In this document: one piece after another, positions 2,331 through 58,255 of the stretch | Layout of the letters: each line of letters starts with the position of its first letter | Numbering within the stretch: the first letter of the stretch is position 1 | Source of the DNA: Geodermatophilus sp. DSM 44513 | GTDB lineage: Bacteria > Actinomycetota > Actinomycetes > Mycobacteriales > Geodermatophilaceae | Direction: 5' to 3' | Length of the DNA: 64,000 nt | NCBI RefSeq assembly: GCF_032460525.1 | Contig: NZ_CP135963.1 | Span: 744,001-808,000, forward strand | The notes under the pieces: generated by a model | What the model was told of the DNA's origin: nothing | The model's input: only the letters and a program-made list of their open reading frames with translations | Database searches by the model: none | Program-made: the position numbers and the translations under genes

Positions 2331-2441
2331 GGAAGGACCCCCGTCCTCCCCACCCTTCGCACGCTCAGGGCGGGACCCTGGACGGGGGCCGTTCCAGCAC
2401 GTCACCGGGCTCGCGGTGGGGCCCTGCAGGGAGGCCGTTCC
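2331..2441. repeat. Stop-codon-abutting hairpin repeat, copy A (with one extra 3' module)
   Basis: The left arm at 2331-2346 (GGAAGGACCCCCGTCC) pairs with the right arm at 2380-2395 (GGACGGGGGCCGTTCC) over 14 of 16 positions. A second 46-base module at 2396-2441 repeats the right-hand half (AGCACGTCACCGGG... ending GGCCGTTCC) without its own left arm. It fills the gap between two convergent genes and probably acts as a two-way transcription terminator. Related copies lie near 17.5, 23.3, 31.6, 49.9 and 58.1 kb. Confidence 0.85.
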
Positions 2442-2446
2442 ATCCC

Positions 2447-3379
2447 TCAGTGCTGGACGATCTCCGTCAGTGGGCCGCGGTAGGGGCGGGCCGGCGGGCC
2501 GGTCACCCCTGGGCGGGCGGTGAACAGCCGGCCGGCGTCGGGCTGCGCGGCCCGGGCGGCGTCGTCCAGCCCCTCCGCCGAGGTGCTGACCACCAGCAGG
2601 TCGCGGCCCGGCCCGGCGAACGCGCAGCTGGACGTCTGCGTCACCCCGGGCACCTCCACCACGGCGAGCAGCTCGCCGTCGGGTGACCAGCGGCGCACCT
2701 GCCCGCCACCCCACAGCGCCGTCCAGAGGCAGCCCTCGTCGTCGACGGTGAGCCCGTCGGCCACGCCGTCGTCCCCGGCGAACTCCAGCAGCACCCGGCC
2801 GCCGCTGAACGCGCCGGTGTCCGGGTCGTACGCGAACGCGTGCACCACGCCGGGGCCGGAGTCGGCGAGGTAGACGGTGCGCCCGTCCGGTGACCAGTCG
2901 ACGCCGTTGGAGACGGTGAGCCCGTCGAGCACGGTGGTCACGGTGCCGTCGAGGTCCAGCCGGTACAGCGTGCCGGCACCCGGGCGCTCGTCGAAGGCCA
3001 TCGTCCCGGCGAGGAACCGCCCGGCGGGGTCGCAGGCGGCGTCGTTCATCCGCGTCCCGCCGCTGTCCGGGCTGCCGCCCTCCCCGGCCAGGGTGACCAG
3101 CACCCGGGCGGTGCCGTCGGCGGCGAGGTGGGTGAAGCCGCCGTCCGCGGCCAGCAGCCACCCGCCGTCCGCCGCCGGGACGACGGCGCCGACGGTGTCC
3201 CCGCCGCGGTGCACCCCCGTCTCGGTGAGGCCCCCGCCGGCGCCGACCGCGGCCCGCCGGACCTGCCCCGCGGCGATGTCCACCCACAGCAGCTCCGCGC
3301 GCCCGGCGTCCCAGGTCGGGCCCTCGCCGTGCCGGGCGGGCGGCAGGCCGGGCACGGGCGTGGCGCGGAGTCGGTGCAC
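2447..3379 (-). CDS. SMP-30/gluconolactonase-like sugar lactonase
   Basis: About 310 residues with the six-bladed propeller pattern of the SMP-30/gluconolactonase/LRE family: HGEGPTWDAGRAELLWVDI near the N-terminus, RMNDAACDPAGRFLAGTM and SNGVDWSPDGRTVYLADS in the centre, the last two carrying the Asn/Asp residues that bind the catalytic metal. Members hydrolyse sugar lactones in the cytoplasm. I chose the GTG at 3379 because homology starts just after it; longer frames run into the divergent gene. It is transcribed away from the inositol-phosphatase-like gene, 67 bases distant. Confidence 0.85.
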   Translation of the reverse strand: MHRLRATPVPGLPPARHGEGPTWDAGRAELLWVDIAAGQVRRAAVGAGGGLTETGVHRGGDTVGAVVPAADGGWLLAADGGFTHLAADGTARVLVTLAGEGGSPDSGGTRMNDAACDPAGRFLAGTMAFDERPGAGTLYRLDLDGTVTTVLDGLTVSNGVDWSPDGRTVYLADSGPGVVHAFAYDPDTGAFSGGRVLLEFAGDDGVADGLTVDDEGCLWTALWGGGQVRRWSPDGELLAVVEVPGVTQTSSCAFAGPGRDLLVVSTSAEGLDDAARAAQPDAGRLFTARPGVTGPPARPYRGPLTEIVQH

Positions 3380-3446
3380 CCCCGCATCGTCCCGGCGCGC
3401 CCGGCCCGACGCGCGCCGGGCGGGCCCGCACCCGATGCTCGTCCCC

Positions 3447-9181: not shown

Positions 9182-9478
9182 TCACGGACGGGGGTTCGTG
9201 CGGGTCCAGCCGCGGTCGTCCCGCCGCCGGCCCAACGCCGCGGCGCAGCGGCGGCACACGTCCTGCACCTCCTCGGCGTGCCGGCCGGACTCCGGCTGCA
9301 CGTCGGCCCAGGAGACGTGCGGGAAGCGGGTCAGCCGCGACCTGTGCAGCGACAGTCCGCACACGGTCTCGTTGCGCCCGCGCTCCCACCCGTGCACCTC
9401 CCCGGCGGGGTAGCGGACGCCGTCCTCGGGATCGACCCACTGCCCGGCGGCCGCGACCGCCGCGTTGCGCACTGCCAT
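9182..9478 (-). CDS. Conserved actinobacterial hypothetical protein
   Basis: 98 residues, no membrane helix or signal peptide. Two cysteine pairs or singles (ETVCGLSL and VQDVCRRC) sit in a layout (HGWERGRNETVCGL...FPHVSWADV) often seen in small uncharacterised actinobacterial proteins and possibly binding a metal. Start ATG 9478. It is convergent with the DUF4236-like gene and divergent from the island that begins near 9.5 kb, so it marks the left edge of the conserved backbone. I do not recognise a function. Confidence 0.6.
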   Translation of the reverse strand: MAVRNAAVAAAGQWVDPEDGVRYPAGEVHGWERGRNETVCGLSLHRSRLTRFPHVSWADVQPESGRHAEEVQDVCRRCAAALGRRRDDRGWTRTNPRP

Positions 9479-9628
9479 GGTCCGCCAGGTACCCGTCCGG
9501 CCTCGGAGTTGCAGCGCGGCGCCGCTCCTGATGCAGCGGGATTGCCCGACACGGCCCGGAACTCTCCGTATCCGTTTGGTTGCTGGTTAGGGTCGCCGGG
9601 ACGACGGGTGGTGCGAGGGGGCGCGAGC

Positions 9629-11047
9629 ATGACCGAGGAGAGCTGGCACGAGGCGCGGTTGATCCCGACATCGGGCATCAGTGGCTCGGAGGAACAAGAA
9701 CGTCGCGCCACTTCTGCGCTGCTCGCCGTGTTGACCGCTGTCCGAGAGTTCGGTCGTGCTGTGACGCAACCTCTCGGGGCGCCAGCCGGGACCGTGCAGG
9801 CGTTCATCGAGGTCCCGTTCACCTTGGGCGACAAGCGCGTGTACCCCGACGGGTTGATCCGGGTGTCGCGGGGGCAGCGGACGTGGACCGCCCTCGTCGA
9901 AGTGAAGACGGGCAACAACGAGCTGAGCGTCGAGCAATTGGAGAACTACCTGGACGTCGCCCGAGATCACGGGTTTGACGCGCTGTTGACGATCAGCAAC
10001 GAGATTCCTCCGGCAGCGGGACAGCATCCGACGAAGGTCGACAAGCGCAAATTGCGCAAGGTCGCACTGCACCATCTGCCGTGGAACCACATCTTGGCGC
10101 AGGCGGTGGTGCAGAAGGAGCACCGAGGAGTCGCTGATCCCGACCAGGCGTGGATCCTGGGCGAGTTGATCCGTTACCTGGAGCACCCGCGATCCGGGGC
10201 CCTCGAGTTCGAGGACATGGGAGGTTCTTGGGTTGCGGTCCGGGATGCCGTCAAGACAGGGACGCTTCGCGCCTCCGACAAGGGGGCGGCCGAGGTCGCT
10301 GCTCGCTTCGACGCCCTGCTTCGTTACGTGTCCCTACGTCTCGGCCGCACGCTTGGCACGGAGGTCGTCCCTGCCGTGACGCGGAAGGAGGTGGCCGAGC
10401 CGGCGTTGCGGACGTCTGCACTGGTGGACGGCCTCACCAAGGAGGGGCGCCTCTCCGGTGCCATCCGCATCCCGAATGCCGTCGCACCCCTCAACATCGA
10501 GCTCGACCTGCGATCCGGCTGCGTGACCTGCCTCGTGGAGATCGACGCGCCGAGGGAAGGACGACCGACCACGAGGATCAACTGGCTGGTGCGTCAGCTG
10601 AAGACCGCACCTGAGTCGTTGAGAGTCGAGGCATTCGCGGCTCATGCGCGTGGGCTGAGCACTGCGAGCCTGCTCAAGGAGGTCCGCGAAGACCCGGCGG
10701 TTCTCGTGCAGGACCCGAAGCGCGACCTGCGAAGCTTCCGCATCGCCGTCACGACTCCACTCGGGCCGAAGAGAGGGCGAGGTCGCGGGGGTGCCATCGA
10801 CTCGGTCATCGACGCGGTCGACACCTTCTACGCGGAAGTGATCCAGCACCTCAAGGCATGGACTGCAGCGCCCCCCAAGATGCGTGAGGTCGCAGGGCTA
10901 CCGGAAGCCGACGCGGCGCTGATCAGTACCGCGCTGTCGTCGCAGGACGGGATCGATGCGGTCGAGAGCCGTGCGGCAGCGGCCGAAGAGGCCTCTGGTC
11001 TGCTGGACGACGTGAACTCGACGATGCCTGAGGCGAGCGAGACGTGA
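9629..11047 (+). CDS. PD-(D/E)XK nuclease-like protein of unknown function
   Basis: 472 residues. The N-terminal part has a good PD-(D/E)XK pattern: YPDGLI with Asp74, then ALVEVKTG with Glu91 and Lys93, followed by a helix (QLENYLDVARDHG). The rest, about residues 200-440, is not recognised; it looks alpha/beta with a small basic patch (GPKRGRGRGG). Base composition is visibly less GC-rich than the flanking genes, suggesting transfer. It lies in the tRNA-Arg-linked island with the Fic gene. A role in genome defence or stress is plausible but is inference from fold and setting. Confidence 0.65.
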   Translation: MTEESWHEARLIPTSGISGSEEQERRATSALLAVLTAVREFGRAVTQPLGAPAGTVQAFIEVPFTLGDKRVYPDGLIRVSRGQRTWTALVEVKTGNNELSVEQLENYLDVARDHGFDALLTISNEIPPAAGQHPTKVDKRKLRKVALHHLPWNHILAQAVVQKEHRGVADPDQAWILGELIRYLEHPRSGALEFEDMGGSWVAVRDAVKTGTLRASDKGAAEVAARFDALLRYVSLRLGRTLGTEVVPAVTRKEVAEPALRTSALVDGLTKEGRLSGAIRIPNAVAPLNIELDLRSGCVTCLVEIDAPREGRPTTRINWLVRQLKTAPESLRVEAFAAHARGLSTASLLKEVREDPAVLVQDPKRDLRSFRIAVTTPLGPKRGRGRGGAIDSVIDAVDTFYAEVIQHLKAWTAAPPKMREVAGLPEADAALISTALSSQDGIDAVESRAAAAEEASGLLDDVNSTMPEASET

Positions 11048-11224
11048 TCGCCACGTGCAGCATCCGCAGGAGGTCGACCGGAGCATCCGGCTGACGGGGA
11101 TGTCGAGCGGACCGGACCGATGTGCCGTGGGAGTCGCAGCAGGAATCAAACCCGTACTCGGTTATGCCGTCCGAGGCTGAACTCCTATGCGACGGCTTTC
11201 CAGAGCTGGTCCTCTGGTGTGGGC

Positions 11225-12442
11225 TCAGCGTGTGATGTCTCCTGTTCGGAGCACCTCACGAGCGGTGAGGACCTCAAGGACGCCGGGCGCTTCGAAGAGG
11301 CGGCCATAGGAGCGACCAGTTCTCTCGCGGAGTATGCCGAGTCTCACCAGACGTGCCACGGCTTTGTTCACTGTCTGGAACGTGCTGTTGAGGCGGGTCG
11401 CCGTCCGGGACACATCGATGTACGGGTAGGCGATCAAGGACTCGGCCAGGTCCCGGATCAGCCCGGATGCGCCAACGTCCCGGAGCCTGTGGGCATAGGC
11501 CTCCTGCACCCGAAGCAGGCGGTCGACTCGAACCGCGGTGTCGAGGGCTGAGAACTCGATGCCCTCGGCAAAAAATCGCACCCATCCGTCCCAGTCACCG
11601 CTGGCGCTGACCTCGAAGAGGCGGTCCTGGTAGTTCCGGCGACGCTGCTCGAACCATGGAGAGATGCTCAACAGCGGGTCCTCGAGCGCACCGTCCTGGA
11701 TGAGCTGTAAGACGACGAGCAGGCGGCCGATGCGGCCGTTGCCGTCATTGAAGGGGTGCAGGGCCTCGAACTGATAGTGGGCCATGGCCGCGGAGACCAC
11801 CGGGTCACGGCGTTCGGTGCGGGAGTTGTTGGTCCAGTCAAGTAGGTCGCGGAGGGACCGTTGCAGCTCCTCTCCAGGCGGAGGCGGGACATAGCGTGCG
11901 CTTTCCAAGCTCGATGAGGTGGTCTCACCGATGGCCACTTGGATGGTGCGGATGTGTCCGGCTTGTTCGGTGTCAGCGTGCGTGCCGCGGGCGAGCCGGC
12001 CCTGCATGTCTTCCACCATGGCGACCCCCAAGGGACGTCCATCTGCGACCTCGGCAAAGCCGTACTCGGCGGTCTGTACGTAGTTGAGGACTTCTGCAAG
12101 CTCAACCGAGAGGGGAATCTCATCAGCTGCATCGGCTGCAAGCACGTCCTCCAGAGGTGCGAAGGTCCCTTCGAGTGCTGAGGTGCTCTGGGCCTCACGT
12201 CGAAGCGTTGGGCGCCGGAGCAGCCCCGGTTGAGGCACCTGCCGTCCGGCTTGCAGGAGGCGCCCAAGCGCGTGGCCGGCACGGCTCACGGCCCGCCATG
12301 TCTGGACAGATAGCGCCGGCTCGTCGTCCAGCGGATCGGGGATGAAGGCGAAGTGGTCGTACTCGCGACCGGTCCGTCCGTCGGTCCCGCGGATCCTCTC
12401 CAAGTGACCGACTGGTGACGCGGCGAAGCGCTCGACCTGCAC
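11225..12442 (-). CDS. Fic family protein with N-terminal inhibitory motif and C-terminal winged helix
   Basis: 405 residues. The catalytic loop HPFNDGNGRIGR (residues 229-240) matches the complete FIC consensus, so AMP-transfer activity is expected. An inhibitory motif TSALEG (87-92) matches (S/T)xxxE(G/N) and lies N-terminal to the FIC core, which places it in the class II, self-inhibited type. Residues about 320-400 form a winged-helix DNA-binding domain (TATRLNSTFQTVNKAVARLVRLGIL). The start is GTG 12442. Inverted repeats just upstream could be its own operator. Lower GC than neighbours and the nearby broken integrase point to acquisition. Confidence 0.92.
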   Translation of the reverse strand: MQVERFAASPVGHLERIRGTDGRTGREYDHFAFIPDPLDDEPALSVQTWRAVSRAGHALGRLLQAGRQVPQPGLLRRPTLRREAQSTSALEGTFAPLEDVLAADAADEIPLSVELAEVLNYVQTAEYGFAEVADGRPLGVAMVEDMQGRLARGTHADTEQAGHIRTIQVAIGETTSSSLESARYVPPPPGEELQRSLRDLLDWTNNSRTERRDPVVSAAMAHYQFEALHPFNDGNGRIGRLLVVLQLIQDGALEDPLLSISPWFEQRRRNYQDRLFEVSASGDWDGWVRFFAEGIEFSALDTAVRVDRLLRVQEAYAHRLRDVGASGLIRDLAESLIAYPYIDVSRTATRLNSTFQTVNKAVARLVRLGILRERTGRSYGRLFEAPGVLEVLTAREVLRTGDITR

Positions 12443-12459
12443 GGATGCCTCCCGTCACT

Positions 12460-12518
12460 TGTCACGCCGACGTGCATGCGTGTGACAGGTTTTCACGTTG
12501 AGCTGGGTTGTGCGTGAA
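12460..12518. promoter_or_regulatory. Two spaced inverted repeats upstream of the Fic gene
   Basis: TGTCAC (12460-12465) and GTGACA (12482-12487) form one dyad, and TTCACG (12492-12497) and CGTGAA (12513-12518) form a second with a similar 15-16 base spacer. Another TTCACG follows at about 12534. They start 18 bases before the Fic start codon on its coding strand. Since the Fic protein has a DNA-binding tail, autoregulation is an attractive reading, but this is inference. Confidence 0.35.
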
Positions 12519-12696
12519 TTCCAGCGGTGTTACTTCACGTCGACCAACACTGGGACCCGGTCGCTGACCAAGACTGGTCCGTCCGAGGCGGAGCACCCCC
12601 AGGCGCTACGCCGTACCAGGGGTCCCGGGACACCCGGCTCTCGAGTGCGAGCACGTCAGCGACGGCCACGTCCATCCATGAGCCATCGGGCCCCAC
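12519..12696. other. Non-coding stretch between Fic operator region and integrase remnant
   Basis: Together with its flanks, 12443-13061 is a stretch of more than 600 bases without an intact gene. This sub-part shows no convincing coding frame, RNA or repeat beyond one further TTCACG word near 12534. It probably represents the decayed 5' part of the integrase gene. Confidence 0.4.
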
Positions 12697-13057
12697 AGAT
12701 CCGGCTGCTGACCGGGCATGTGGCGCGACCCCCTGCGGGTCGGCAACTCCCGGCGGTACTGGTTCCACCGGTCGGCAGTCGCCGCCGGTCTACCGGCCTG
12801 GTATCGCACGAGCTCCGTCACACCGCGGCGTCGCCGCCGTCCCCTTCGGCGCGTCGGTGAAGGGGGTGCAGTCGATGCTGGGCCACGCCTCGGCGCAGAT
12901 GACGCTGGACCGGTACGGCCACCTGTTCCCCGACGAGCTCGACGCGGTCGCAGACCGCTTGGACGCCGCTCGTGCTGACCAGGTGCTGACCGAGCCCCGA
13001 CCTGACGCCCCTGTGGCCCGCATCCGGCGCGCGGACCAGCCGCTGACCAGCACTTCT
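12697..13057 (+). pseudogene. Tyrosine recombinase (phage-type integrase), broken C-terminal remnant
   Basis: Three reading frames together spell a decayed integrase C-terminus. RVGNSRRYWFHRSAVAAGLP lies in one frame, SHELRHTAAS with the H-x-x-R catalytic motif in a second (about 12801-12830), and SVKGVQSMLGHASAQMTLDR plus YGHLFPDELDAVADRL with the catalytic GH and Tyr in a third (about 12852-12965). At least two frameshifts separate them, and no N-terminal domain is recognisable upstream. The remnant lies next to the 3' end of tRNA-Arg, the classic position for an integrase at its attachment site, so it marks the right end of an old integrated element. Confidence 0.85.
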
Positions 13058-13061
13058 GCGG

Positions 13062-13134
13062 TGCCCCCGGCAGGATTCGAACCTGCGACGCACGGTTTAG
13101 GAAACCGATGCTCTATCCCCTGAGCTACGGGGGC
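13062..13134 (-). tRNA. tRNA-Arg (anticodon CCU)
   Basis: The complement folds as a complete 73-base cloverleaf. The acceptor stem is GCCCCCG/CGGGGGC with discriminator A, the D arm is GCTC/GAGC, the anticodon loop TTCCTAA gives anticodon CCU (reads AGG), and the T arm is GCAGG/CCTGC around TTCGAAT. CCA is not encoded. The 3' end faces the broken integrase, so this gene is the probable integration target of the neighbouring island. Confidence 0.95.
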
Positions 13135-13172
13135 TCGCCGGCGCGGGGCCGGCCGGGGCGTACCGGTCGAGG

Positions 13173-16578: not shown

Positions 16579-16619
16579 GGCCACGGGCGCCGGTGGACGT
16601 CGCGGGGGACCATGGCGGC

Positions 16620-17489
16620 GTGACCGCCGTCCCCACCGCCGTCCACCCGGCCACCGACGATCCCGGCTCCCTGGACGCGCTGGCCGGGCTGGTGGCCGAC
16701 GGCGACGTCGTCGTGCTGACCGGTGCCGGGCTGTCCACCGACTCCGGCATCCCCGACTACCGCGGGGCCACCGGGTCGCTGCGCCGGCACACGCCGATGA
16801 CCTACCAGACGTTCCTGCGCGACCCCCGCGGCCGGCACCGCTACTGGGCCCGCAGCTACGTCGGGTGGCCGCAGATCCGCGAGGCCCGGCCGAACGCGGG
16901 GCACGCGGCGGTCGCCGACCTGCAGCGCGCCGGGCTGGTGGGCGGGCTGATCACGCAGAACGTCGACGGGCTGCACCAGGCTGCCGGCGCGCGCGACGTC
17001 CTCGAGCTGCACGGCGGGCTGGACCGCACGATCTGCCTGGCCTGCGGGGACGTCGCCGACCGCGGCGCGCTGCACGAGCGGCTGCGGGCGGCCAACCCGC
17101 ACTTCGGCCCGCACGCCGACGAGGTCAACCCCGACGGCGACGCCGAGCTGCCCGACGAGGTGCTCGACGGGTTCGTCATGGTCGACTGCACCGCCTGCGG
17201 GCGCGGGCCGCTCAAGCCCGACGTCGTCTTCTTCGGCGAGACGGTGCCGCGCGACCGGGTGGACGCCTGCTTCGCCATGGTGGAGCGGGCCGGCTGTCTG
17301 CTGGTGCTCGGCTCCTCCCTGACCGTGATGAGCGGCTACCGGTTCGTGCTGCGCGCCGAGAAGCTCGGCGTCCCCGTCGGGCTGGTCAACCTCGGCCCCA
17401 CCCGCGGCGACGCGAAGGTCGACGTCCGGGTGGACGCCCCGCTCGGCGCGGTGCTGCCCGACCTGGTGCGCCGCGTCGCCGACGGATGA
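16620..17489 (+). CDS. Sir2 family NAD-dependent protein deacylase
   Basis: 289 residues. NAD-binding motif TGAGLSTDSGIPDYRG (near 39-54), TQNVDGLH with the catalytic-region Asn/Asp, catalytic His in LELHGG, zinc ligands in ICLACGD and DCTACG, then KPDVVFFGE and LGSSLTVMSG. All sirtuin core motifs are intact. It removes acyl groups from lysines using NAD. GTG 16620 is the start; the stop overlaps an ATG at 17486 of the following small frame. Confidence 0.93.
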   Translation: MTAVPTAVHPATDDPGSLDALAGLVADGDVVVLTGAGLSTDSGIPDYRGATGSLRRHTPMTYQTFLRDPRGRHRYWARSYVGWPQIREARPNAGHAAVADLQRAGLVGGLITQNVDGLHQAAGARDVLELHGGLDRTICLACGDVADRGALHERLRAANPHFGPHADEVNPDGDAELPDEVLDGFVMVDCTACGRGPLKPDVVFFGETVPRDRVDACFAMVERAGCLLVLGSSLTVMSGYRFVLRAEKLGVPVGLVNLGPTRGDAKVDVRVDAPLGAVLPDLVRRVADG

Positions 17490-17854
17490 CGCGCGAGCGG
17501 AAGGACCTCCCTGCCCCCCAGCGCTCGCGAGCTCGCGCCGGGCCCCTGCAGGGAGGCCACCTGACCGACGACGGGCGCTGGCTGGTCGTCGACGGCCGGC
17601 GCTGGCGGGCCGCCGACACCGCGCTGCCCGACGACGTCCGCGCCCGGCTGCTGCACCACCTCGGCGTGGCGCGCTCCGCCGTCCGCACGGCCGGCCGGTC
17701 CGGGGACGACGCCGCGCTGGCCGCCGCCCGCGCCCGGGTGCAGCTGGCCAAGACCGGGCTGGGGGAGCGCGGCCCGGCCTGGTGGGAGCAGGACGACGCC
17801 GCCCGCCGCGCCCGCTGGGAGGCCGCGCTCACCGCCCTCGACGACGGGGCCTGA
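17486..17854 (+). CDS. Small conserved hypothetical protein whose N-terminus runs through a hairpin repeat
   Basis: The clear protein body begins at LTDDGRWLVVDGRRWRAADTALP and continues to about 97 residues of helical, Arg/Ala-rich sequence ending ARWEAALTALDDGA, as in small actinobacterial proteins with an RWRAxDP start. The only conventional start in frame is ATG 17486, overlapping the sirtuin stop; it adds 25 residues encoded by a hairpin repeat. The alternative is a CTG start at 17561, six bases after GGGAGG. I annotate the longer frame, with the start uncertain. Confidence 0.6.
   Translation: MTRERKDLPAPQRSRARAGPLQGGHLTDDGRWLVVDGRRWRAADTALPDDVRARLLHHLGVARSAVRTAGRSGDDAALAAARARVQLAKTGLGERGPAWWEQDDAARRARWEAALTALDDGA
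17499..17558. repeat. Hairpin repeat, copy C (overlaps a coding start)
   Basis: The left arm GGAAGGACCTCCCTGC (17499-17514) pairs with the right arm GCAGGGAGGCC (17548-17558); the terminal GTTCC of the other copies is absent. It starts ten bases after the sirtuin stop codon. Its GGGAGG could serve as a ribosome binding site for a CTG start at 17561. Confidence 0.8.
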
Positions 17855-22588: not shown

Positions 22589-23284
22589 GTGGACCCCTCG
22601 ACCGCACCCCGGCTCGGCTCGCTGACCTGGACCCCCGCCGCCGAACGGCCCGAGCTGCTCGCGGCCCCGGTGGCCGCGGCGCTGGGCGCGCTGACCGGGC
22701 CCGCCTGGGTGGCCGAGATCGACGCCGACCTCGCCGACACCGCCGCCTTCACCGAGGCCTACGGCGTACCGCTGGAGGTCTCGGCCAACTGCGTGGTCGT
22801 CGCCGCCCGCCGGGCCGGGCAGACCGAGCTGGCCGCCTGCCTGGTCCCGGCGACCGCGCGCGCCGACGTCAACGGCTTGGTGCGCCGCCGGCTCGGTGCC
22901 CGCAAGGTCTCCTTCGCCCCGCAGGACGTCGCCGTCGCCGAGAGCGGCATGGCCTACGGCGGCATCACCCCCCTCGGCCTGCCGCCGTCCTGGCCGGTGC
23001 TCGTGGACCCCGCCGTCGCCGCCGCCGAGCTGGTGGTCATCGGGTCCGGGACCCGGGGCAGCAAGCTCGCCGTTCCCGGGGCCGCGCTGGCCGCGCTGCC
23101 CGGGGCGGAGGTCGTCGAGGGGCTGGGCCGCCCGGTGGCCGAACCGCCCCCGCCCCGATCGGAGGCCCCGACCGGACGCGCCCCCGACGACCGGGACGTC
23201 GGCTGGGGCGAGCGGCCCGACGAGCCCTCCGCCGACGACCGGCGCTACCAGGAGGACCGCCCGCCGCACTGGGGCACCGACTGA
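22589..23284 (+). CDS. YbaK/aminoacyl-tRNA deacylase family protein with a disordered tail
   Basis: 231 residues. The first ~180 match the YbaK/ProX editing fold: CVVVAARRAGQTELAACLV, the conserved lysine in RRRLGARKVSFA, GMAYGGITPLGLP and GSGTRGSKL. Such enzymes remove wrongly charged amino acids from tRNA. The last ~45 residues are acidic and proline-rich (RSEAPTGRAPDDRD, DDRRYQEDRPPHWG), which is not usual for the core family. GTG 22589 is chosen because it begins the conserved region. A hairpin repeat overlaps its stop. Confidence 0.82.
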   Translation: MDPSTAPRLGSLTWTPAAERPELLAAPVAAALGALTGPAWVAEIDADLADTAAFTEAYGVPLEVSANCVVVAARRAGQTELAACLVPATARADVNGLVRRRLGARKVSFAPQDVAVAESGMAYGGITPLGLPPSWPVLVDPAVAAAELVVIGSGTRGSKLAVPGAALAALPGAEVVEGLGRPVAEPPPPRSEAPTGRAPDDRDVGWGERPDEPSADDRRYQEDRPPHWGTD

Positions 23285-23351
23285 AGGAGGACCACCGTCC
23301 TCTCCACGCCTCGCGAGCGCAGGCGGAGGGCCCCTGGACGGTGGCCGTTCC
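23283..23351. repeat. Hairpin repeat, copy B
   Basis: The left arm, ending CCACCGTCC at 23300, pairs perfectly over nine bases with GGACGGTGG at 23336-23344, followed by the conserved CCGTTCC. It begins inside the TGA stop of the YbaK-like gene and fills the convergent gap before mscL, as a two-way terminator would. Confidence 0.85.
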
Positions 23352-23357
23352 AGCGCA

Positions 23358-23741
23358 TCACCTGGCGCGCAGCAGGTCGCGGATCTCGGTCAGCAGCTCG
23401 GTCTGCGTCGGCTGTGCGGGCCCGGGCTCCTCGCCGCGGGCCCGCCGGTCGACCAGCGCCTTCATCGGCAGCACCACCAGGAGGTAGATGACCGCCGCCG
23501 TCATCACGAAGGTCACGAGCTGGCTGACGAACGCGCCCCAGGCGAACACCTGCCCGTCGACCACGACGGTCCCGCCCAGCTGGCCGCCGCCGCTCACCAG
23601 ACCCACCAGCGGGGTCAGGAAGGCCGCGGCGAAGGTGTTCACGACGGCGGTGAACGCCGTGCCGATGACGACGGCGACCGCGAGCTCGACCACGTTGCCG
23701 CGCAGCAGGAAGTCCTTGAAGCCTCTGAGCACGGGCGTCAT
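23358..23741 (-). CDS. mscL: Large-conductance mechanosensitive channel
   Basis: 127 residues, normal MscL length. The N-terminal amphipathic helix and first pore helix read FKDFLLRGNVVELAVAVVIGTAFTAVVN, with the conserved gate region; the second helix is FVMTAAVIYLLVVLPM, followed by a basic linker and a C-terminal coiled helix (TELLTEIRDLL). It releases solutes on osmotic downshock. Its ATG overlaps the stop of the upstream SAF-domain gene, so they are coupled. Confidence 0.95.
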   Translation of the reverse strand: MTPVLRGFKDFLLRGNVVELAVAVVIGTAFTAVVNTFAAAFLTPLVGLVSGGGQLGGTVVVDGQVFAWGAFVSQLVTFVMTAAVIYLLVVLPMKALVDRRARGEEPGPAQPTQTELLTEIRDLLRAR

Positions 23742-30912: not shown

Positions 30913-31617
30913 ATGGGTTCGGGTGTGCTGCTGGCCGCTCTGGTCGTGCTGTGGTTCGTGGTGCTGGTGCCCATGGTGGTGACCCGCGGCGACGCGCAGG
31001 GGACCGGCGCCCCGGGGGCCGACTCCGGCCGGACGCTGCAGCGTCGGCGGACGGTGGACCCCACGGTCCACGCCGCGACCGAGCGGGTCTCGGTCGACCG
31101 CGCCGCGCTGCGCGACAGCGGCGAGCTGCGGGTCGACGTGCACGCCGCCCGCCGCCGCACGCTGGCCGTGCTGGTGACCCTGGTGCTGGTGGCGCTGGTC
31201 GGCGCGCTGGTCTGGAGCCCCTGGCTGTGGATCGCCCAGGGTCTGTTCGACGTCGCCCTGGTCGCCTACCTGGTGGTGCTGCGCGGCGTGGCCCGCCGGG
31301 AGCGGCTGGCCGCCCGCCGCGCCGCCCGCGCCGCCGCCCGCACCGCCCGCCGGCCGGCCGCCCGTCCGGTCCCCGCACCGCGCCCGGCGCCCCTGGTCGC
31401 GGAGCCGGCCGTCGCCGAGCACCGCCCCACCGTCGGCCCGGTGCACCCCAGCCTGCCGCTGGCGCCGGTGCACCCGCTGCGCCCCGGCCGCGTCGTGGCC
31501 GCCCGCGCCGCCGCCCCGGCCGGGTGGCAGGACAGTGCGGTCGTCGGCCTGGACGACGACGACATCGGGTTCGCCGACATCGACGTCTACCAGCCGCGCC
31601 GGGTGGCCAACGGTTGA
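30913..31617 (+). CDS. glpR: Membrane protein GlpR-like (Glp receptor)
   Basis: 234 residues. One membrane helix lies at residues 4-22, and two helices at about 82-105 and 107-122, with a cytoplasmic linker between. The second half is an Arg/Ala/Pro-rich disordered stretch (about 125-175) and a short conserved tail (DDDDIGFADIDVY). Position after galU-glp-rimJ and this topology match the GlpR receptor that tethers the gephyrin-like Glp at the division site in corynebacteria; the sequence similarity itself could not be tested. A hairpin repeat starts two bases after its stop. Confidence 0.72.
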   Translation: MGSGVLLAALVVLWFVVLVPMVVTRGDAQGTGAPGADSGRTLQRRRTVDPTVHAATERVSVDRAALRDSGELRVDVHAARRRTLAVLVTLVLVALVGALVWSPWLWIAQGLFDVALVAYLVVLRGVARRERLAARRAARAAARTARRPAARPVPAPRPAPLVAEPAVAEHRPTVGPVHPSLPLAPVHPLRPGRVVAARAAAPAGWQDSAVVGLDDDDIGFADIDVYQPRRVANG

Positions 31618-31618
31618 T

Positions 31619-31774
31619 GAAGGACCTCCCTGCCCCCCGCGCCTCGCTCCGCTCGCCGCGGGACCCTGCAGGGAGGCCGTTCCAGTACGTCACCGGCTCG
31701 TCGCGGGCCCCTGCACAGGGGCCGGTTCCAGCACCTCACCGGGCTCGGCGCGGGCCCCTGCAGGGAGGCCGTCG
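31619..31774. repeat. Hairpin repeat, copy D with two extra 3' modules
   Basis: The left arm GAAGGACCTCCCTGC (31619-31633) pairs with GCAGGGAGGCCGTTCC (31668-31683). Two further modules of ~46 bases follow (31684-31729 and 31730-31774), each repeating the A-G-(T/C)-A-C ... CACCGG ... GGGCCCCTG right-hand half. The middle module forms its own small hairpin (GGCCCCTG/CAGGGGCC). The array lies between glpR and tRNA-Ala. Confidence 0.85.
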
Positions 31775-31802: not shown

Positions 31803-31876
31803 GGGGCTGTGGCGCAGTCCGGTAGCGCACCTCGTTCGCATCGAGGGGGTCAGGGGTTCGAATCCCCTCAGCTCCA
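31803..31876 (+). tRNA. tRNA-Ala (anticodon CGC)
   Basis: A complete 74-base cloverleaf. The acceptor stem GGGGCTG/CAGCTCC contains the G3:U70 wobble pair that defines alanine tRNAs, with discriminator A. The anticodon stem is CCTCG/CGAGG and the loop TTCGCAT gives anticodon CGC, reading GCG. The T arm is AGGGG/CCCCT around TTCGAAT. No CCA is encoded. Confidence 0.95.
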
Positions 31877-44675: not shown

Positions 44676-45563
44676 GTGAGCCGGTCGGCCGCCTCGCGCG
44701 CCAACCGGAGGGGGGAGCCGCCGCCGTCCCCGGAGCCGCTGCCGTCGCCCGCGGTCGACAGCCACACCCACCTGGACATCACCCTCGACGGGGACCGCCG
44801 GCCGGACGACGCGGCCGTGGACGACGAGGTCGCGGCCGCCGTCGCCGTCGGCGTGACCCGGCTGGTGCAGGTGGGCGTCGACGTGCCTTCCTCGCGGTGG
44901 TCGGCGGAGCTCGCGGCCCGGCACCCGCGCGTGCTGGCCGCCGTCGCCGTACACCCCAACGAGGCCGGCGCCGGCGCGGCGACGGACGACGCCCTGGCCG
45001 AGATCGACCGGCTGGCCGCCCTGCCGCGGGTGCGGGCGGTGGGGGAGACCGGCCTGGACCGCTACCGCACCGGCCCCGACGGCTGGGCGGCGCAGGAGGC
45101 GTCCTTCCGGGCACACGCCCGCATCGCGGCCGAGCACAGGGTGGCGCTGGTCGTCCACGACCGCGACGCGCACGCCGAGGTGCTCCGGGTGCTCGACGAC
45201 GAGGGCGCCCCCGAGCACGTGGTGATGCACTGCTTCTCCGGCGACGCCGCGTTCGCCCGGGCCTGCGTCGAGCGGGGCTGGGTGCTGTCCTTCGCCGGCA
45301 CGCTCACCTTCGCCAACGCCGGCTACCTGCGCGAGGCCGCCGCGCTGACCCCGGTCGACCAGCTGCTGGTGGAGACCGACGCGCCGTTCCTCACCCCCGT
45401 CCCGCACCGCGGCCGGCCCAACGGCTCCCGGCTGGTGCCGCACACGGTGCGTGCGCTGGCCGAGGTCACCGGCGTGCCGCTCGCCGAGCTCGGCGCCCAC
45501 CTCACCGCCACCGCCGAGCGCGTCTTCGGCCCCTGGGACGCGCCCCCTCCTCCGCGATCATGA
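44676..45563 (+). CDS. tatD: TatD family 3'-5' deoxyribonuclease
   Basis: 295 residues from GTG 44676. The metal-binding start is AVDSHTHLDI, then VAVHPNEA, AVGETGLDRYR with the catalytic Glu, LVVHDRDAHAEVL, VMHCFSGD, and LLVETDAPFLTPVPHRG. A ~25-residue Ser/Pro-rich N-terminal extension precedes the TIM barrel. It is part of the conserved metG-tatD-rpfB-rsmA-ispE order. Confidence 0.93.
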   Translation: MSRSAASRANRRGEPPPSPEPLPSPAVDSHTHLDITLDGDRRPDDAAVDDEVAAAVAVGVTRLVQVGVDVPSSRWSAELAARHPRVLAAVAVHPNEAGAGAATDDALAEIDRLAALPRVRAVGETGLDRYRTGPDGWAAQEASFRAHARIAAEHRVALVVHDRDAHAEVLRVLDDEGAPEHVVMHCFSGDAAFARACVERGWVLSFAGTLTFANAGYLREAAALTPVDQLLVETDAPFLTPVPHRGRPNGSRLVPHTVRALAEVTGVPLAELGAHLTATAERVFGPWDAPPPPRS

Positions 45564-48095: not shown

Positions 48096-48959
48096 CTGAG
48101 CACCCCACCCGGACAGACCGACGGGCTGCTGGGCCCGGCCGCCATCCGCGACCTGGCCCGGCAGCTCGGGCTGCGCCCGACCAAGAGCCTCGGGCAGAAC
48201 TTCCTGCACGACGCCAACACCATCCGGCGGATCGTGCGCACCGCCGAGCTGGACCCCGACGACGTCGTCCTGGAGGTGGGGCCCGGGCTCGGCTCGCTCA
48301 CCCTCGGGCTGCTCCCGGTCGCCGCGCACGTCACCGCCGTCGAGATCGACCCCCGGCTGGCCGAGCTGCTGCCCCGCACGGTGGCCGGGCGCGCGCCCGG
48401 CCTCGCCGGCCGGCTCACCGTGGTCGAGGCCGACGCGCTCCGGGTGCGCGAGCTGCCCGGGCCGGCCCCCACGGCGCTGGTGGCCAACCTGCCGTACAAC
48501 GTGGCGGTGCCCGTCCTGCTGCACCTGCTGGAGCTGCTGCCGACCCTGCGCCGCGGGCTGGTCCTCGTGCAGGCCGAGGTCGCCGAGCGGCTGGCCGCCG
48601 CCCCGGGCGCGCCGGCCTACGGCGTCCCGTCGGTCAAGGCCGCCTGGTACGGCGAGGTCCGCCGGTCCGGCAGCATCGGCCGCCGGGTGTTCTGGCCCGA
48701 GCCCAACGTGGACTCCGGCCTGGTCGCCCTCGACCGCCGTCCCCCGCCGCCGGGCGACCGCGCCGCCACCTTCGCCGTCGTGGACGCCGCCTTCGCCACC
48801 CGCCGCAAGGGGCTGCGGGCCGCGCTGGCCCGGTGGGCCGGCGGCCCGGCCGCCGCGGAGGCCCGGCTGCGGGACGCGGGCATCGACCCGGCCACCCGCG
48901 GCGAGCAGCTCTCGGTCGCCGACTTCGCCCGGCTGGCGGCGACGGAGCCCCGGCCGTGA
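48096..48959 (+). CDS. rsmA: 16S rRNA dimethyladenosine transferase (KsgA)
   Basis: About 287 residues. It has the motifs [35 protein letters not shown] for [20 protein letters not shown] for the NLPY target site, and [14 protein letters not shown]. The start is uncertain: the family body begins just after CTG 48096 (LSTPPG...), preceded at four bases by CGGAG, while the only standard start upstream in frame is GTG 48048, inside rpfB. I annotate from the CTG. The stop overlaps ispE. Confidence 0.9.
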
Positions 48960-49921
48960 GCTGGGCCTCCTCCGGCGGGCCCGGCCGGCTGGCAGGGGGC
49001 GGCGCGGTCGTGGCCCGGGCCCCCGCCAAGGTCAACCTGCACCTCGCCGTCGGGCCGCTGCGCCCGGACGGGTACCACGAGCTGCGCACCGTCTACCTGG
49101 CCGTGTCGCTGTTCGACACGGTCACGGTGCGCCCGGGCACCGGGCTGACCCTCACCGTGACCGGCGAGGGGACGACGGGCAGCGGGCCCGACGCCGTCCC
49201 GACCGACCGGCGCAACCTGGTGTGGCAGGCCGCCGAGCTGCTGGCCGAGCGGGCCCGGGTGCCCGCCGACGCCGCCATCACCATCGACAAGTCGATCCCC
49301 GCGGCGGCGGGGCTGGCCGGGGGCAGCGCGGACGCCGCGGCCGCGCTGGTCGCCCTCGACGCGTTGTGGGGCACCCACGCCACCCGGGGCGAGCTCACCG
49401 CACTCGCCGCCCGGCTGGGCAGCGACGTCCCGTTCAGCCTGGTGGGCGGGGTGGCCCTGGGCTCCGGCCGCGGCGAGCAGCTGTCCCCGGTGCTGGCCCG
49501 CCGCCGCTGGGACTGGGTGCTCGGCATCGCCGGCGAGGGGTTGTCCACCCCCGCCGTCTACGCCGAGCTGGACCGGCTGCGGGCCGAGGGCCGGGTGCCC
49601 AACGGCGAGGTGCACGCCTCGTCGGACCCGGTGATCGCGGCGCTGCGCAGCGGGCCGGTGCCGGCACTGGCCACCGCGCTGGCCAACGACCTGCAGCCAC
49701 CGGCGCTGTCCCTGCGGCCCGACCTGCGCCGCGCGCTGCGGGCCGCGAGGGGTGCCGGGGCCGCCGCAGCGATCGTCAGCGGCTCCGGCCCGACGGTGGC
49801 CGCGCTCGCCACGGACGAGGACGCGGCGGTGCGGATGGCCGCGACGCTGGCCGGGGAGGGCGTCTACCGCACCGTCCGCGCCGTGCACGGCCCGGTCCCC
49901 GGCGCCCGCCTGGTCGGCTGA
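48956..49921 (+). CDS. ispE: 4-diphosphocytidyl-2-C-methyl-D-erythritol kinase
   Basis: 321 residues from GTG 48956, overlapping the rsmA stop. GHMP kinase features: [23 protein letters not shown] with the substrate Lys, the ATP loop [18 protein letters not shown], and [10 protein letters not shown] near the C-terminus. It phosphorylates CDP-ME in the MEP isoprenoid pathway. A hairpin repeat overlaps its stop codon. Confidence 0.94.
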
Positions 49922-49924
49922 AAG

Positions 49925-49981
49925 AGGACCCCCTCGCCCCCCACCGCTCGCAAGCTCGCGGCGGGACCCTGCGAGGGGCCT
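49925..49981. repeat. Hairpin repeat, copy E
   Basis: The left arm AGGACCCCCTCGC (49925-49937) pairs with GCGAGGGG (49971-49978), followed by CCT. It starts four bases after the ispE stop. The end of its right arm supplies part of the TAG stop codon of the convergent desaturase gene, so the element spans the entire gap. Confidence 0.82.
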
Positions 49982-50966
49982 AGACAGCAGTGGCCGGTGG
50001 GCGGCGCTTGGCGGCCAGCCGCACGGGGTCCGGCCACTTCACCGAGTGCGCCCAGCCCAGCTTCTCGAACACCCAGATCACCCGGGCGCTGATGTCGACC
50101 TGCCCGCGCAGCACGCCGTGCCGGGCGCAGGTCGGGTCGGCGTGGTGCAGGTTGTGCCACGACTCCCCGGCGCTCAGGATCGCCAGCGGCCAGAAGTTGG
50201 TGGCGCGGTCCCGGGAGACGAAGGGCCGGTCGCCCACGACGTGGCACACAGAGTTGATCGACCAGGTCACGTGGTGCAGCAGGGCTACCCGCACCAGCCC
50301 GGCCCAGAAGAACGCCGTCCAGGCGCCGACCCAGCTGCCCGTCACCAGGCCGCCCACGACTGCCGGAAGGGCGAGGCTGAGGAAGGCCCAGACCACGAAC
50401 AGCCGGCTGGTGCGCCGCAGCGTGGCGTCCTTGAGCAGGTCGGGGGCGTACCGCTCGGCGTTGGTCTGCCGCCGGTCGAACAACCAGCCCAGGTGCGCGT
50501 GCCACATCCCCCGGAGCAGCGCGCGGGCATCGGTGCCGTAGCGCCACGGCGAGTGCGGGTCGCCCTCGCGGTCGGAGAACGCGTGGTGCCGGCGGTGGTC
50601 GGCCACCCACTGCACCACCGGCCCCTGGACGGCCATGCAGCCGACCACGGCCAACGCGATGCGCAGCGGGCGGGCGGCCTTGAACGAGCCGTGCGTGAAG
50701 TGCCGGTGGTAGCCGACGGTGATGCCCAGCAGCGTGAGGGAGTAGAGGCCGACCGCCAGCCCGACGTCGAGCCAGGACAGCCCCCACCCCCACACGGCGG
50801 GGACGACGGCGGCGAGGGCCAGGAAGGGCACGACGACGAAGACGTAGAGCGTGACCTGCTCGACCAGCCCCTTCTCCTTGCCGAAGGCGGTGGGCGGGAG
50901 CCCGGCGTCCGGGTCGGCCGGCCGGGGGGCCGGGGCCGTGGGGCGCGTCGGGGCGGGAGCGGACAA
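49980..50966 (-). CDS. Fatty acid desaturase (acyl-CoA/stearoyl type)
   Basis: 328 residues from TTG 50966, chosen because a GGAGG site lies four bases upstream. Membrane helices flank the three histidine boxes: HRHFTH, HRRHH and HNLHH, which bind the di-iron centre. It introduces a cis double bond, most likely delta-9, into fatty acyl chains and adjusts membrane fluidity. Longer GTG starts exist upstream, so the exact start is uncertain. The stop lies in the hairpin repeat. Confidence 0.9.
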   Translation of the reverse strand: MSAPAPTRPTAPAPRPADPDAGLPPTAFGKEKGLVEQVTLYVFVVVPFLALAAVVPAVWGWGLSWLDVGLAVGLYSLTLLGITVGYHRHFTHGSFKAARPLRIALAVVGCMAVQGPVVQWVADHRRHHAFSDREGDPHSPWRYGTDARALLRGMWHAHLGWLFDRRQTNAERYAPDLLKDATLRRTSRLFVVWAFLSLALPAVVGGLVTGSWVGAWTAFFWAGLVRVALLHHVTWSINSVCHVVGDRPFVSRDRATNFWPLAILSAGESWHNLHHADPTCARHGVLRGQVDISARVIWVFEKLGWAHSVKWPDPVRLAAKRRPPATAV

Positions 50967-55802: not shown

Positions 55803-55824
55803 GCGTCCTGACCCAGGGCTCGAC

Positions 55825-55859: not shown

Positions 55860-55861
55860 CC

Positions 55862-56449: not shown

Positions 56450-56646
56450 CGGGCGTCCCCGGGTGGGTGAGTCGCCGTCACCAACGGGTGAAGGGGCCCG
56501 CCGCGCGTTGACCCGCCCGTGACGCAGTGTGATGGTCGTCCGACGTCGGACACCGTGCCCGGACGAACGCCCTGCTCACAGGCGAACAGTCGTCCCGTGC
56601 ACGCGTGGTGCCGACCACACGTCGTCACGTGCGTCCGGGGGAAACC

Positions 56647-58134
56647 GTGCTGCTCGACCACTCCACCGCCCGTCTCGGGACGGCGTCCCGCGCGCTCCGG
56701 GGGACGCCGAGCGTGCAGCGCCGGCCCCGCCCGCGGGCCGGGCGGGCGCCCTGGGTGGCCCGGTACTCCCGCACGCTCACCGGCTTCGAGCTCACGGCCG
56801 CCACGGTGGCCGCGGTGGCCGTGCTGGGCACGCACCCCGGCGCCTCGCCGGGCACCTCGCTGTTCTGGGCCAGCGTCGCCCTCGTCGTCGTCTGGCCGGT
56901 GCTGCTGCACGCCACCGGCGCCCACGCCGAGCGGGTCTTCGGCTCCGGCAGCGACGAGTACCGCGCGGTGGGCAGGGCCGGGTTCGGGCTGCTCGCCGTC
57001 GCCGGGTTCGTCTCCTACGCCGCCGAGCTGGACCTGAGCCGGGCGCTGGTGGTCGGCGCCGTCCCGGCGCTGACGCTGGGCACCCTGCTGGGGCGCTTCG
57101 CCGCCCGCTGCGCGCTGCGCCGGCTGCGCGCGCAGGGCCACTGCGCCAAGCGGGTCGTCGTCGTGGGCCGGGGGACCGCGGTCCTCGAGCTGGTCGACCG
57201 GCTGCGCCGGGAGCGGTTCGCCGGGCTGGAGGTCGTCGCCGCCTGCGTGACCTCCGCCGACCGCGACCGGGTGACCCGGGTGGCCGGCGTCCCCGTCGGC
57301 GGGCTGGACGACGTGCTGTCGCTGGTCGGCACGCTCGGCGCGGACACCATCGCGGTGACGTCGGCCAGCGAGACCGCGGCGCAGTACCTGCGCTCGCTGT
57401 CCTGGCAGCTGGAGGGCACCGGCATCGAGCTGCTCGTGGCCCCCGGTCTGGTCGAGGTGGCCGGCCCACGGCTGCACATCCGCCCGTTCGAGGGGCTGCC
57501 GCTGCTGTCGGTGGAGCAGCCGCGCTTCGAGGGCTGGCAGCGCGTCGTCAAGGGCGGCCTGGACCGCGCCGTCGCCGCGCTGGCCCTGCTCGTGCTCGCC
57601 CCGGCGCTGCTGGCCATCGCCGTCACCGTGAAGGTCACCAGCCCCGGCCCGGTGCTCTACCGCCAGGAGCGGGTCGGGCTGAACGGTCAGGCCTTCACCA
57701 TGCTCAAGTTCCGCAGCATGGTGATGGACGCCGAGCGCCAGCTCGACGCCCTGCGCGCGCAGAGCACGGCCGACGGGCTGCTGTTCAAGATGCGGGTCGA
57801 CCCGCGGGTCACCCCGGTCGGCCGGGTGATGCGCCGGCTGTCGCTGGACGAGCTGCCGCAGCTGCTCAACGTCCTCGGCGGCTCGATGTCGCTGGTCGGT
57901 CCGCGCCCGCCGCTGCCCGGTGAGGTCGCCCGCTACGACACCTCGGTCAGCCGCCGGCTGCTGGTCAAGCCCGGGCTGACCGGCCTGTGGCAGATCTCCG
58001 GCCGCAGCGACCTGCCGTGGGAGGAGGCCGTGCGCCTAGACCTGCGCTACGTCGAGAACTGGTCGCTCGCGCTGGACGCGCTGATCCTCGCCAAGACGGT
58101 GCGCGCCGTGCTCACCAGCTCCGGGGCGTACTGA
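56647..58134 (+). CDS. Exopolysaccharide polyprenyl glycosylphosphotransferase (initiating sugar transferase)
   Basis: 495 residues from GTG 56647, preceded by GGGGGA (GTG 56605 is also possible). Four N-terminal helices and a Rossmann-like central domain (VVVVGRGTAVLELVDRL) are followed by the catalytic PglC/WbaP-type domain: MLKFRSMVMDAERQLD, LFKMRVDPRVTPVGRVMRRLSLDELPQL, VGPRPPLPGEV and KPGLTGLWQISGRSDLPWEEAV. It loads the first sugar phosphate on undecaprenyl phosphate. It opens the polysaccharide cluster. Confidence 0.93.
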   Translation: MLLDHSTARLGTASRALRGTPSVQRRPRPRAGRAPWVARYSRTLTGFELTAATVAAVAVLGTHPGASPGTSLFWASVALVVVWPVLLHATGAHAERVFGSGSDEYRAVGRAGFGLLAVAGFVSYAAELDLSRALVVGAVPALTLGTLLGRFAARCALRRLRAQGHCAKRVVVVGRGTAVLELVDRLRRERFAGLEVVAACVTSADRDRVTRVAGVPVGGLDDVLSLVGTLGADTIAVTSASETAAQYLRSLSWQLEGTGIELLVAPGLVEVAGPRLHIRPFEGLPLLSVEQPRFEGWQRVVKGGLDRAVAALALLVLAPALLAIAVTVKVTSPGPVLYRQERVGLNGQAFTMLKFRSMVMDAERQLDALRAQSTADGLLFKMRVDPRVTPVGRVMRRLSLDELPQLLNVLGGSMSLVGPRPPLPGEVARYDTSVSRRLLVKPGLTGLWQISGRSDLPWEEAVRLDLRYVENWSLALDALILAKTVRAVLTSSGAY

Positions 58135-58136
58135 GC

Positions 58137-58255
58137 AAGGACCACCCCTCCCCCCACGCCTCGCAGGCTCGGCGCGGGCTCCTGAGGGGTGGCCGTTCCA
58201 GCACGTCACCGGGCTCGGCGCGGGACCCGGGACGGGGCCGTTCCAGCACCTCACC
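58137..58255. repeat. Hairpin repeat, copy F with one full and one partial extra 3' module
   Basis: The left arm AAGGACCACCCCTC (58137-58150) pairs with GAGGGGTGG (58184-58192), followed by CCGTTCC. A second right-hand module occupies 58200-58244, and a partial third starts at 58245 (AGCACCTCACC). The array begins three bases after the upstream stop and separates the initiating transferase from the next glycosyltransferase. Confidence 0.85.

What the first reader, a model, noticed from the sequence alone, without database searches (positions are those of the whole stretch)
2331..58255. Dispersed hairpin repeats abutting stop codons, with stem cores that covary
Six loci (2331, 17499, 23283, 31619, 49925, 58137) share an outer AAGGACC on the left and usually GGCCGTTCC on the right. 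The core between differs in five ways (CCCCGTCC, CCACCGTCC, CCTCCCTGC, CCCCCTCGC, CCACCCCTC), yet each left core is matched by its exact complement on the right arm. That is covariation, so structure is conserved over sequence. In five of six copies the element begins 0-4 bases from a TGA stop (ten in the sixth), and three sit between convergent genes. This is seen directly. I infer either a spreading terminator family or a small mobile palindrome that targets gene ends; I know of no name for it.
Basis: partly seen in the sequence, partly recalled or inferred. Interest (0 to 1): 0.78.

Follow-up and report, generated by a model that had tools for sequence, protein, structure and literature searches.

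The report
Mobile hairpin family hugging stop codons
A family of short DNA hairpins, roughly 300 in this genome, sits just behind the stop codons of genes in one family of actinobacteria and comes and goes between related species; it behaves like a known class of bacterial repeats, but that class's known mobilising enzyme was not found.

Summary
A covariance model of 48 copies gives 151 hits in this genome (scoring cap reached) and 60 in an 800 kb systematic sample, so roughly 300 copies. The unit is [stop codon], 0-4 nt, AAGGACC, a 7-9 bp hypervariable but complementary core, conserved inner stem and loop, complementary core, GGCC, sometimes GTTCCAGCACNTCACC. Core pairs covary strongly. Of 55 sampled copies, 34 start within 6 nt of a same-strand stop, against 1.6% of intergenic positions. 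Against a sister species (median 93% protein identity), gene ends show filled and empty sites with the stop kept, and sites filled by different cores; native terminator-like hairpins lie beyond some inserts. Copies also nest in each other's loops, in both orientations. Hits: 34 of 37 genomes of the family examined, 0 of 24 others of the order, 0 of 196 others drawn from the class. Y1/RAYT transposase: 0 of those 37. Best reading: a REP-like, non-autonomous mobile palindrome with an unidentified mobiliser that docks at gene ends and sometimes supplies stop codons. A terminator role is possible but not supported by the tests made. New variant of a known kind.

The parts
2331..2406 (+). Full element (core CCCCGTCC type) with GTTCCAGCACGTCACC tail, 1 nt after TGA of the TPR-protein gene 1472-2329; next gene convergent
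   Evidence: the sister species lacks it at the same gene end
2407..2441 (+). Tandem right half (loop tip to GTTCC) with another core and no left partner
17499..17566 (+). Element (core CTCCCTGC), about 10 nt after TGA of the SIR2-domain gene 16593-17489, inside the 5' end of predicted ORF 17486-17854
   Evidence: same core in G006 and G007, one left-arm change each in G009 and G019; absent in G008, G013, G002
23285..23362 (+). Element (core CACCGTCC) directly after TGA of the tRNA_edit-domain gene 22589-23284; the tail TCA is the stop of the convergent gene 23358-23732
   Evidence: the sister species has the same core here
31618..31694 (+). Element (core CTCCCTGC) directly after TGA of gene 30913-31617
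   Evidence: comparison in 20 congeners
31695..31771 (+). Two tandem right halves, before a tRNA gene (31803-31876)
49922..49980 (+). Tailless element (core CCCCTCGC) directly after TGA of the GHMP-kinase gene 48956-49921; its last base is shared with the stop (CTA) of the convergent gene 49980-50966
   Evidence: elements at this gene end in five of seven congeners compared, unlike in core in G008 and G009, related and partly decayed in G003, G013, G015
58135..58210 (+). Element (core ACCCCTC) directly after TGA of the sugar-transferase gene 56755-58134; next gene codirectional, about 190 nt on
58211..58255 (+). Tandem right half with core GGGACGGGG and its own tail

Best explanation
It is a REP-like, non-autonomous mobile palindrome family of an actinobacterial family, by the record names Geodermatophilaceae. 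A hairpin unit of about 60 nt (NGAAGGACC - variable core - conserved inner stem and loop - complementary core - GGCC, sometimes with GTTCCAGCACNTCACC) reaches new sites, most probably as a folded single strand handled by a mobiliser acting in trans. It joins immediately 3' of stop codons at ends of transcription units, and also enters the loops of older copies. Copies are then inherited, decay, or are built over by further copies, so gene ends turn over between species. Shown here: the family, its structure, covariation, docking at stops, presence/absence between relatives, nesting. Inferred: the single-stranded intermediate, the trans-acting enzyme, and that docking reflects target choice together with purging of copies elsewhere. 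Some copies supply the stop codon of the facing gene.
For: Copy number: 151 hits with 150 candidates scored; 60 hits at E<=0.01 in 40 x 20 kb. Covariation: 11 of 17 pairs changed on both sides, score 0.432 against 0.144 shuffled and at most 0.096 slid. Docking: 34 of 55 sample copies and 104 of 133 own copies start <=6 nt after a same-strand stop; 83 of the 104 fall in four spacing classes (TGA at 3 in 52, at 0 in 16; TAG at 1 in 8, at 4 in 7); 1.6% of intergenic positions expected. Named records of the family: 57 of 81. Sister G008: of 14 gene ends with a true element in either genome, 7 own-only (one unclear), 5 with a different or decayed core, 2 with the same core; stop kept at L313:7003-, L316:17190-, L315:3933+, window 2329. 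At the 31617 gene end 13 of 20 congeners carry an element or remnant, 6 are empty, 1 not readable. Nesting: by eye 13 of the 22 rows (9 direct, 4 inverted), one three deep. Tight codirectional junctions avoided: 8 of 102 against 217 of 741.
Against: No mobiliser was found: Y1_Tnp 0 of 37 family genomes; reverse transcriptase patchy and without a match in the sister genome; no composite copy carrying a mobiliser in the DNA held, a limited search. No target-site duplication was seen by eye, and some empty sites differ by several nt or may be decayed copies (L315, L312, the groEL-like end). The sister species differ by about 7% at protein level, so no insertion was caught within a species. Part of the pattern is vertical: related cores at one gene end in several congeners, so not every core difference is a new insertion. 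The kept mismatches in outer and inner stem are not explained by simple self-copying. Stop-like triplets at non-stop copies (28 of 62, against 7 and 4 in control windows) are no more than the column composition gives (25.9 in a column shuffle), so a target triplet is not proved.
Confidence: 0.7

Rival explanations
1. A family of intrinsic transcription terminators (or 3' mRNA stabilisers), kept by selection for RNA structure and spread by recombination between gene ends.
For: Sense orientation directly behind stops, tight codirectional junctions avoided, strong folding (-32.4 to -39 kcal/mol; z -0.95 to -2.70), compensatory pairs, related cores at one gene end in several congeners. In convergent pairs a second hairpin (stem >=9) is rarer behind the element (2 of 15) than behind element-free stops (34 of 113), but p = 0.23.
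Against: Native terminator-like hairpins lie beyond some inserts. In codirectional pairs second hairpins are not rarer (9 of 43 against 23 of 191). No U-tract in the copies read; the tail lies outside the stem. G-U 21 against A-C 46 among flanked core positions. Nested and inverted copies do not fit a terminator origin.
Confidence: 0.15
2. A true GTAG-type REP mobilised by a RAYT (TnpA-REP).
For: REPs sit near 3' ends, GTAG termini often provide a TAG stop, E. coli REPs keep conserved stem mismatches (passages of PMC3733652 and PMC8266576). Some nested copies read GTAGAAGGACC.
Against: PF01797 found in 0 of 37 genomes of the family, while the same search rang in 5 of 14 control genomes and in 3 of 24 other genomes of the order. 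GTAG is not conserved at the left end.
Confidence: 0.05
3. Enzyme-free spread: palindromes excised or copied by replication and repair (hairpin-loop breakage, template switching), with complementarity renewed by intra-strand correction.
For: Tandem right halves start at the loop tip; nested copies replace part of the outer loop; a congener keeps a shrunken copy with the core but without the loop (G015 behind the ortholog of window gene 44676-45563).
Against: Does not explain docking at stops or new locations. The copy in the ORF beside SIR2 kept its core, or all but one base of it, in own and four congeners, so cores are not inherently fast-changing; coding constraint there is not excluded.
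Confidence: 0.1

Closest known systems
REP elements (GTAG superfamily, RAYT/TnpA-REP)
   Same: Short high-copy extragenic palindromes, conserved stem mismatches (E. coli), near 3' ends, termini can supply stop codons (passages of PMC3733652 and PMC8266576).
   Different: About 60-76 nt instead of 20-40, freely covarying core, no GTAG head as a rule, no Y1 transposase match in the 37 family genomes searched, nested in each other's loops.
CGTC-tagged REPs
   Same: Palindromes without a dedicated transposase, next to 3' ends of genes (passages of PMC3733652); the tail here reads CACGTCACC in 21 of 29 exact tails.
   Different: The CGTC lies in an optional tail 4 nt beyond the stem, is C[G/C]TC, and only 82 of 267 scanned copies have GTTCC after GGCC.
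Rickettsia palindromic elements (in-gene insertion recalled; RPEs named in the PMC3733652 passages)
   Same: Palindromes that can lie in frame inside genes, as the 17499 copy seems to.
   Different: Here in-gene copies are the exception (1 of 55 sample copies called inside a gene).
Intrinsic terminators (recalled)
   Same: GC-rich hairpin directly after the stop codon.
   Different: A sequence family with an optional tail, no U-tract in the copies read, and placed ahead of native terminator-like hairpins at some ends.
Integron attC sites (recalled)
   Same: Hairpins after stop codons with fixed ends and variable, complementary stems.
   Different: Dispersed among ordinary genes; integrase and attC motifs were not searched for.

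Membership tests
REP, GTAG superfamily | Short palindrome in high copy number, mostly extragenic | tested here: met
   60 hits in 800 kb; 34 of 55 sample copies directly behind stops, 1 called inside a gene
REP, GTAG superfamily | GTAG tetranucleotide at the foot of the hairpin | tested here: not met
   at stops the left end is TGA/TAG/TAA plus 0-4 variable bases; GTAG only in some non-stop copies
REP, GTAG superfamily | RAYT (Y1 HUH) transposase in the lineage | tested here: not met
   PF01797 in 0 of 37 family genomes
REP, CGTC superfamily | CGTC tag at one end of the hairpin | tested here: inconclusive
   CGTC in 21 of 29 exact tails, but the tail is optional and not next to the stem
MITE | Target-site duplication | tested here: inconclusive
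   none seen by eye at the filled/empty pairs, but the flanks have diverged
MITE | A related autonomous element | tested here: inconclusive
   no composite with a mobiliser in the DNA held; whole genomes were not searched for one
Intrinsic terminator | Hairpin followed by a U-run | tested here: not met
   no U-run in the sequences read
Intrinsic terminator | Ends transcripts | not testable with these tools
   needs term-seq or a reporter
Rfam structured RNA families | Match at gathering score | tested here: not met
   only three tRNAs in the window
Integron attC | Cassette array with integrase and R-box motifs | not tested
   dispersed copies speak against it; integrase not searched

The most novel reading that the evidence does not exclude
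A third class of REP-like mobile hairpins that uses the stop codon as its docking site: a folded single-strand element, moved by an unknown non-RAYT enzyme, that joins right behind translation stops without harming the gene, can carry stop codons for both strands, and keeps changing its stem core so that copies stay foldable yet distinct.
Probability: 0.35. Interest if true: 0.8.

Novelty: new variant of a known kind. Interest (0 to 1): 0.62.

Why it matters
It adds an abundant palindrome family, not found in the literature searches made, in a lineage where the known REP transposase was not detected, with an unusually exact placement rule (0-4 nt behind stops, a few preferred spacings). It offers natural empty/filled pairs for asking how non-autonomous hairpins move without RAYTs, why gene ends are their niche, and whether such inserts act as terminators. 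It is also a caution: strong covariation at 3' ends need not mean a functional RNA.

Tried and rejected
Searched Y1/RAYT transposase in the own genome and 60 relatives: none in the family, 3 of 24 other genomes of the order have one. Searched reverse transcriptase as a mobiliser: patchy, no match in the sister genome, rejected. Looked for gene-bearing composites with the arms 160-4500 nt apart in the loci held: 6 rows; four look like chance matches in coding sequence, two (L200, L273) are two separate elements around ordinary genes whose predicted proteins, read by eye and recall, include no transposase. Tested whether the palindrome extends into the flanks: no excess over permuted pairs. Tested a second terminator-like hairpin behind the element: mixed, not significant at stem >=9; at stem >=8 the fractions are 0.33 against 0.18 (codirectional) and 0.13 against 0.42 (convergent), not tested. 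Tested a linked stop triplet at non-stop copies: above control windows, but explained by column composition. Pattern with a fixed CCC: 0. Viral contigs: no match. Replication-strand bias: 99 of 150 hits along the presumed leading strand, assuming the origin at the contig start; not followed further. Four literature searches aimed at this family or its placement listed no paper on it; searches aimed at REP-like repeats.

Rows dropped before counts: searches used 55 of the 60 sample hits (the five with E 0.002-0.01 left out); one search used 82 of the 92 rows (duplicates, partial and overlapping rows left out); 133 remained after removing copies seen twice, 9 of them without a readable anchor. 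34 of 42 leaves out 8 unanchored and 5 nested sample copies; one search used 41 for this set by mistake, so I rely on its 34-of-55 test (p about 6e-47). One search used 80 of the 119 loci and left out copies near locus ends; by genus it gave 22 of 31 Geodermatophilus, 13 of 24 Blastococcus, 18 of 21 Modestobacter. In one search the script flagged 21 of 155 gene pairs; by eye 7 are chance matches, which leaves 14. In that comparison one search has 32 own hits in 253 kb and 8 G008 hits in 244 kb (lengths), so many own hits, and three G008 hits (two in L305, one in L306), fall outside the 155 pairs. One search scored at most about 79 candidates per genome and 150. In one search, 22 rows were read by eye: 13 nested, the rest chance, tandem or unclear.
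Full report
What is there. The six loci are real and belong to a family spread over the genome. The 3' tail GGCCGTTCCAGCACNTCACC has 85 matches with up to two mismatches in the 4.63 Mb genome against 1 for the reversed control (tandem tails counted singly). From 48 copies a covariance model was built. It reports 151 hits in the genome, a floor because only 150 candidates were scored. In a systematic sample of 40 x 20 kb it finds 60 hits at E<=0.01, which scales to roughly 300-350 copies.

Anatomy (read). Reading outwards from the loop: loop CTCGC-NN-GCTCG; an inner stem of the type CCCACCG/CGGCGGG, usually with an A-C mismatch; a C-rich internal loop; the variable core of 7-9 bp; CC/GG; and an outer foot GGAAGGA/CCGTTCC with G-G and A-C mismatches. 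The core is the striking part: among 53 scanned copies of the sample and window there are 34 different 7-mers, yet 29 of the 53 have all nine positions paired. On the alignment 11 of 17 pairs show changes on both sides, with 126 such cells against 37.6 in shuffles and at most 24 in slid versions. 82 of 267 scanned copies have GTTCC right after GGCC. Variants include tandem right halves that begin at the loop tip (window 2407, 31695, 58211), 22-nt repeats of the tail (L048, L057), an array of five hairpins (L136:11446-11758) and nested copies.

Placement. Of the 55 sample hits used, 34 start within 6 nt behind a same-strand stop codon; 1.6% of intergenic positions do so (34 of 55: p about 6e-47). 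Among stop-like triplets followed by an intergenic base only 593 of 3898 are real stops. Of 133 non-redundant own copies, 104 are at stops; 83 of these fall in four spacing classes from stop to AGGACC: TGA at 3 (52) or 0 (16), TAG at 1 (8) or 4 (7). The other 29 comprise nested copies, copies whose right end abuts the stop of a facing gene, unanchored pieces, one called inside a gene, and some with no evident rule. Among 59 facing (convergent) neighbours, the tail's TCA at 11 nt behind GGCC is itself the facing gene's stop in 9. With the element's length taken out, tight codirectional junctions (<30 nt) are rare: 8 of 102 against 217 of 741 gene ends. In named records 57 of 81 copies obey the rule.

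Distribution. Hits occur in all 26 genomes of the genus examined (this one included), in 8 of 11 others of the family and in 0 of 24 genomes of other families of the order, and in 0 of 196 other genomes drawn from the class, a few of them shared with the order set (stricter filters, E<=1e-4). No viral contig matches.

Mobility. At the stop of window gene 30913-31617, 13 of 20 congeners carry an element or a remnant, six are empty and one could not be read. Cores differ widely, though some congeners share or nearly share one (CTCCTGC type in G016 and G022, with a remnant in G014), so part of this is vertical. In five of the six empty genomes a clear native terminator-like hairpin follows the stop; in G002 and G007 the element lies between the stop and that hairpin, and in G004 before an imperfect one. 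At the 49921 gene end, G008 and G009 carry cores unlike own, while G003, G013 and G015 carry related, partly decayed outer copies, two of them with an inverted copy in the loop. Against the closest relative G008 (median 93.3% protein identity over 155 reciprocal pairs), 14 gene ends truly carry an element in either genome: 7 own-only (L314 unclear), 2 with the same core, 5 with a different or decayed core (own element of the L311 end read in L034). The clearest empty sites are L313:7003-, L316:17190- and L315:3933+, where the stop is kept and, at L315, the downstream hairpin is identical. At the end of gene 17241-18870 of L106 (GroEL-like C terminus by recall) G008 keeps only a tail-like remnant, and at L312:5433 it may keep a decayed copy, so not every empty site is pristine. 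Own has more hits here (32 in 253 kb) than G008 (8 in 244 kb). Nested copies, direct and inverted, sit in the outer loop; G016 has three in one. The 17499 copy, in a predicted coding region, has the same core in own, G006 and G007, one changed base in G009 and G019, and is missing in G008, G013 and G002.

Is it an RNA signal? If the sense RNA hairpin were under selection, G-U departures should outnumber A-C ones, since both come from the same kind of mutation on the two arms. Among flanked core positions of 304 scanned copies G-U is 21 and A-C 46 (two-sided p 0.003). This does not support a constrained sense RNA and fits DNA hairpins that are perfect when young and then decay, although strand-biased mutation could contribute. 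Second terminator-like hairpins behind the element are neither clearly depleted nor enriched.

Mechanism. I favour a non-autonomous palindrome moved as a folded strand by a trans-acting enzyme, by analogy with REP/TnpA-REP, where single-stranded REPs with conserved stem mismatches are cut and joined (PMC8266576, passages seen). The enzyme is not identified: Y1_Tnp has no match in 37 family genomes and reverse transcriptase does not track the family. Why stops? Either the mobiliser prefers stop-like triplets and selection purges copies elsewhere, or movement is tied to gene ends. Non-stop copies show stop-like triplets at the left end in 28 of 62, against 7 and 4 in control windows, but a column shuffle gives 25.9, so this is a loose left-end composition rather than a proven target.

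Known relatives. [quoted passage not shown] The present family shares this behaviour but fails the GTAG and RAYT tests; the CGTC test is inconclusive. I therefore file it as REP-like in action, not as a member. In the Geodermatophilus obscurus genome paper, searched only for the words repetitive, repeat, transpos and intergenic, the passages shown do not mention it.

Noticed in passing
window 9473-13172: My gene caller leaves a 3.7 kb stretch without a confident gene although long ORFs exist (9278-11047 +, 11225-12442 -); possibly an unusual or acquired region.
   Followed up: no
L136:11446-11758: Array of five hairpins of the family in tandem with alternating cores behind one stop codon.
   Followed up: partly
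L058 (own genome 3817500-3824500): Cluster of several copies within about 3 kb, including a larger form with an inverted copy inside.
   Followed up: no
G020, G028, G036: A same-genus genome with only 21 hits where most others reach the scoring cap, and family genomes with 5 and 26. Useful for finding the mobiliser by gene content.
   Followed up: no
window 17486-17854: A copy contributes about 20 codons near the N terminus of a predicted protein in several congeners, while others lack it.
   Followed up: partly
L170, near 14019 in one strand: DNA that reads as collagen-like Gly-X-Y repeats (seen in a row).
   Followed up: no
L197: A record labelled Bacillus sp. AZ43 (flagged unverified) carries the element; probably a mislabelled Geodermatophilaceae genome.
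   Followed up: no
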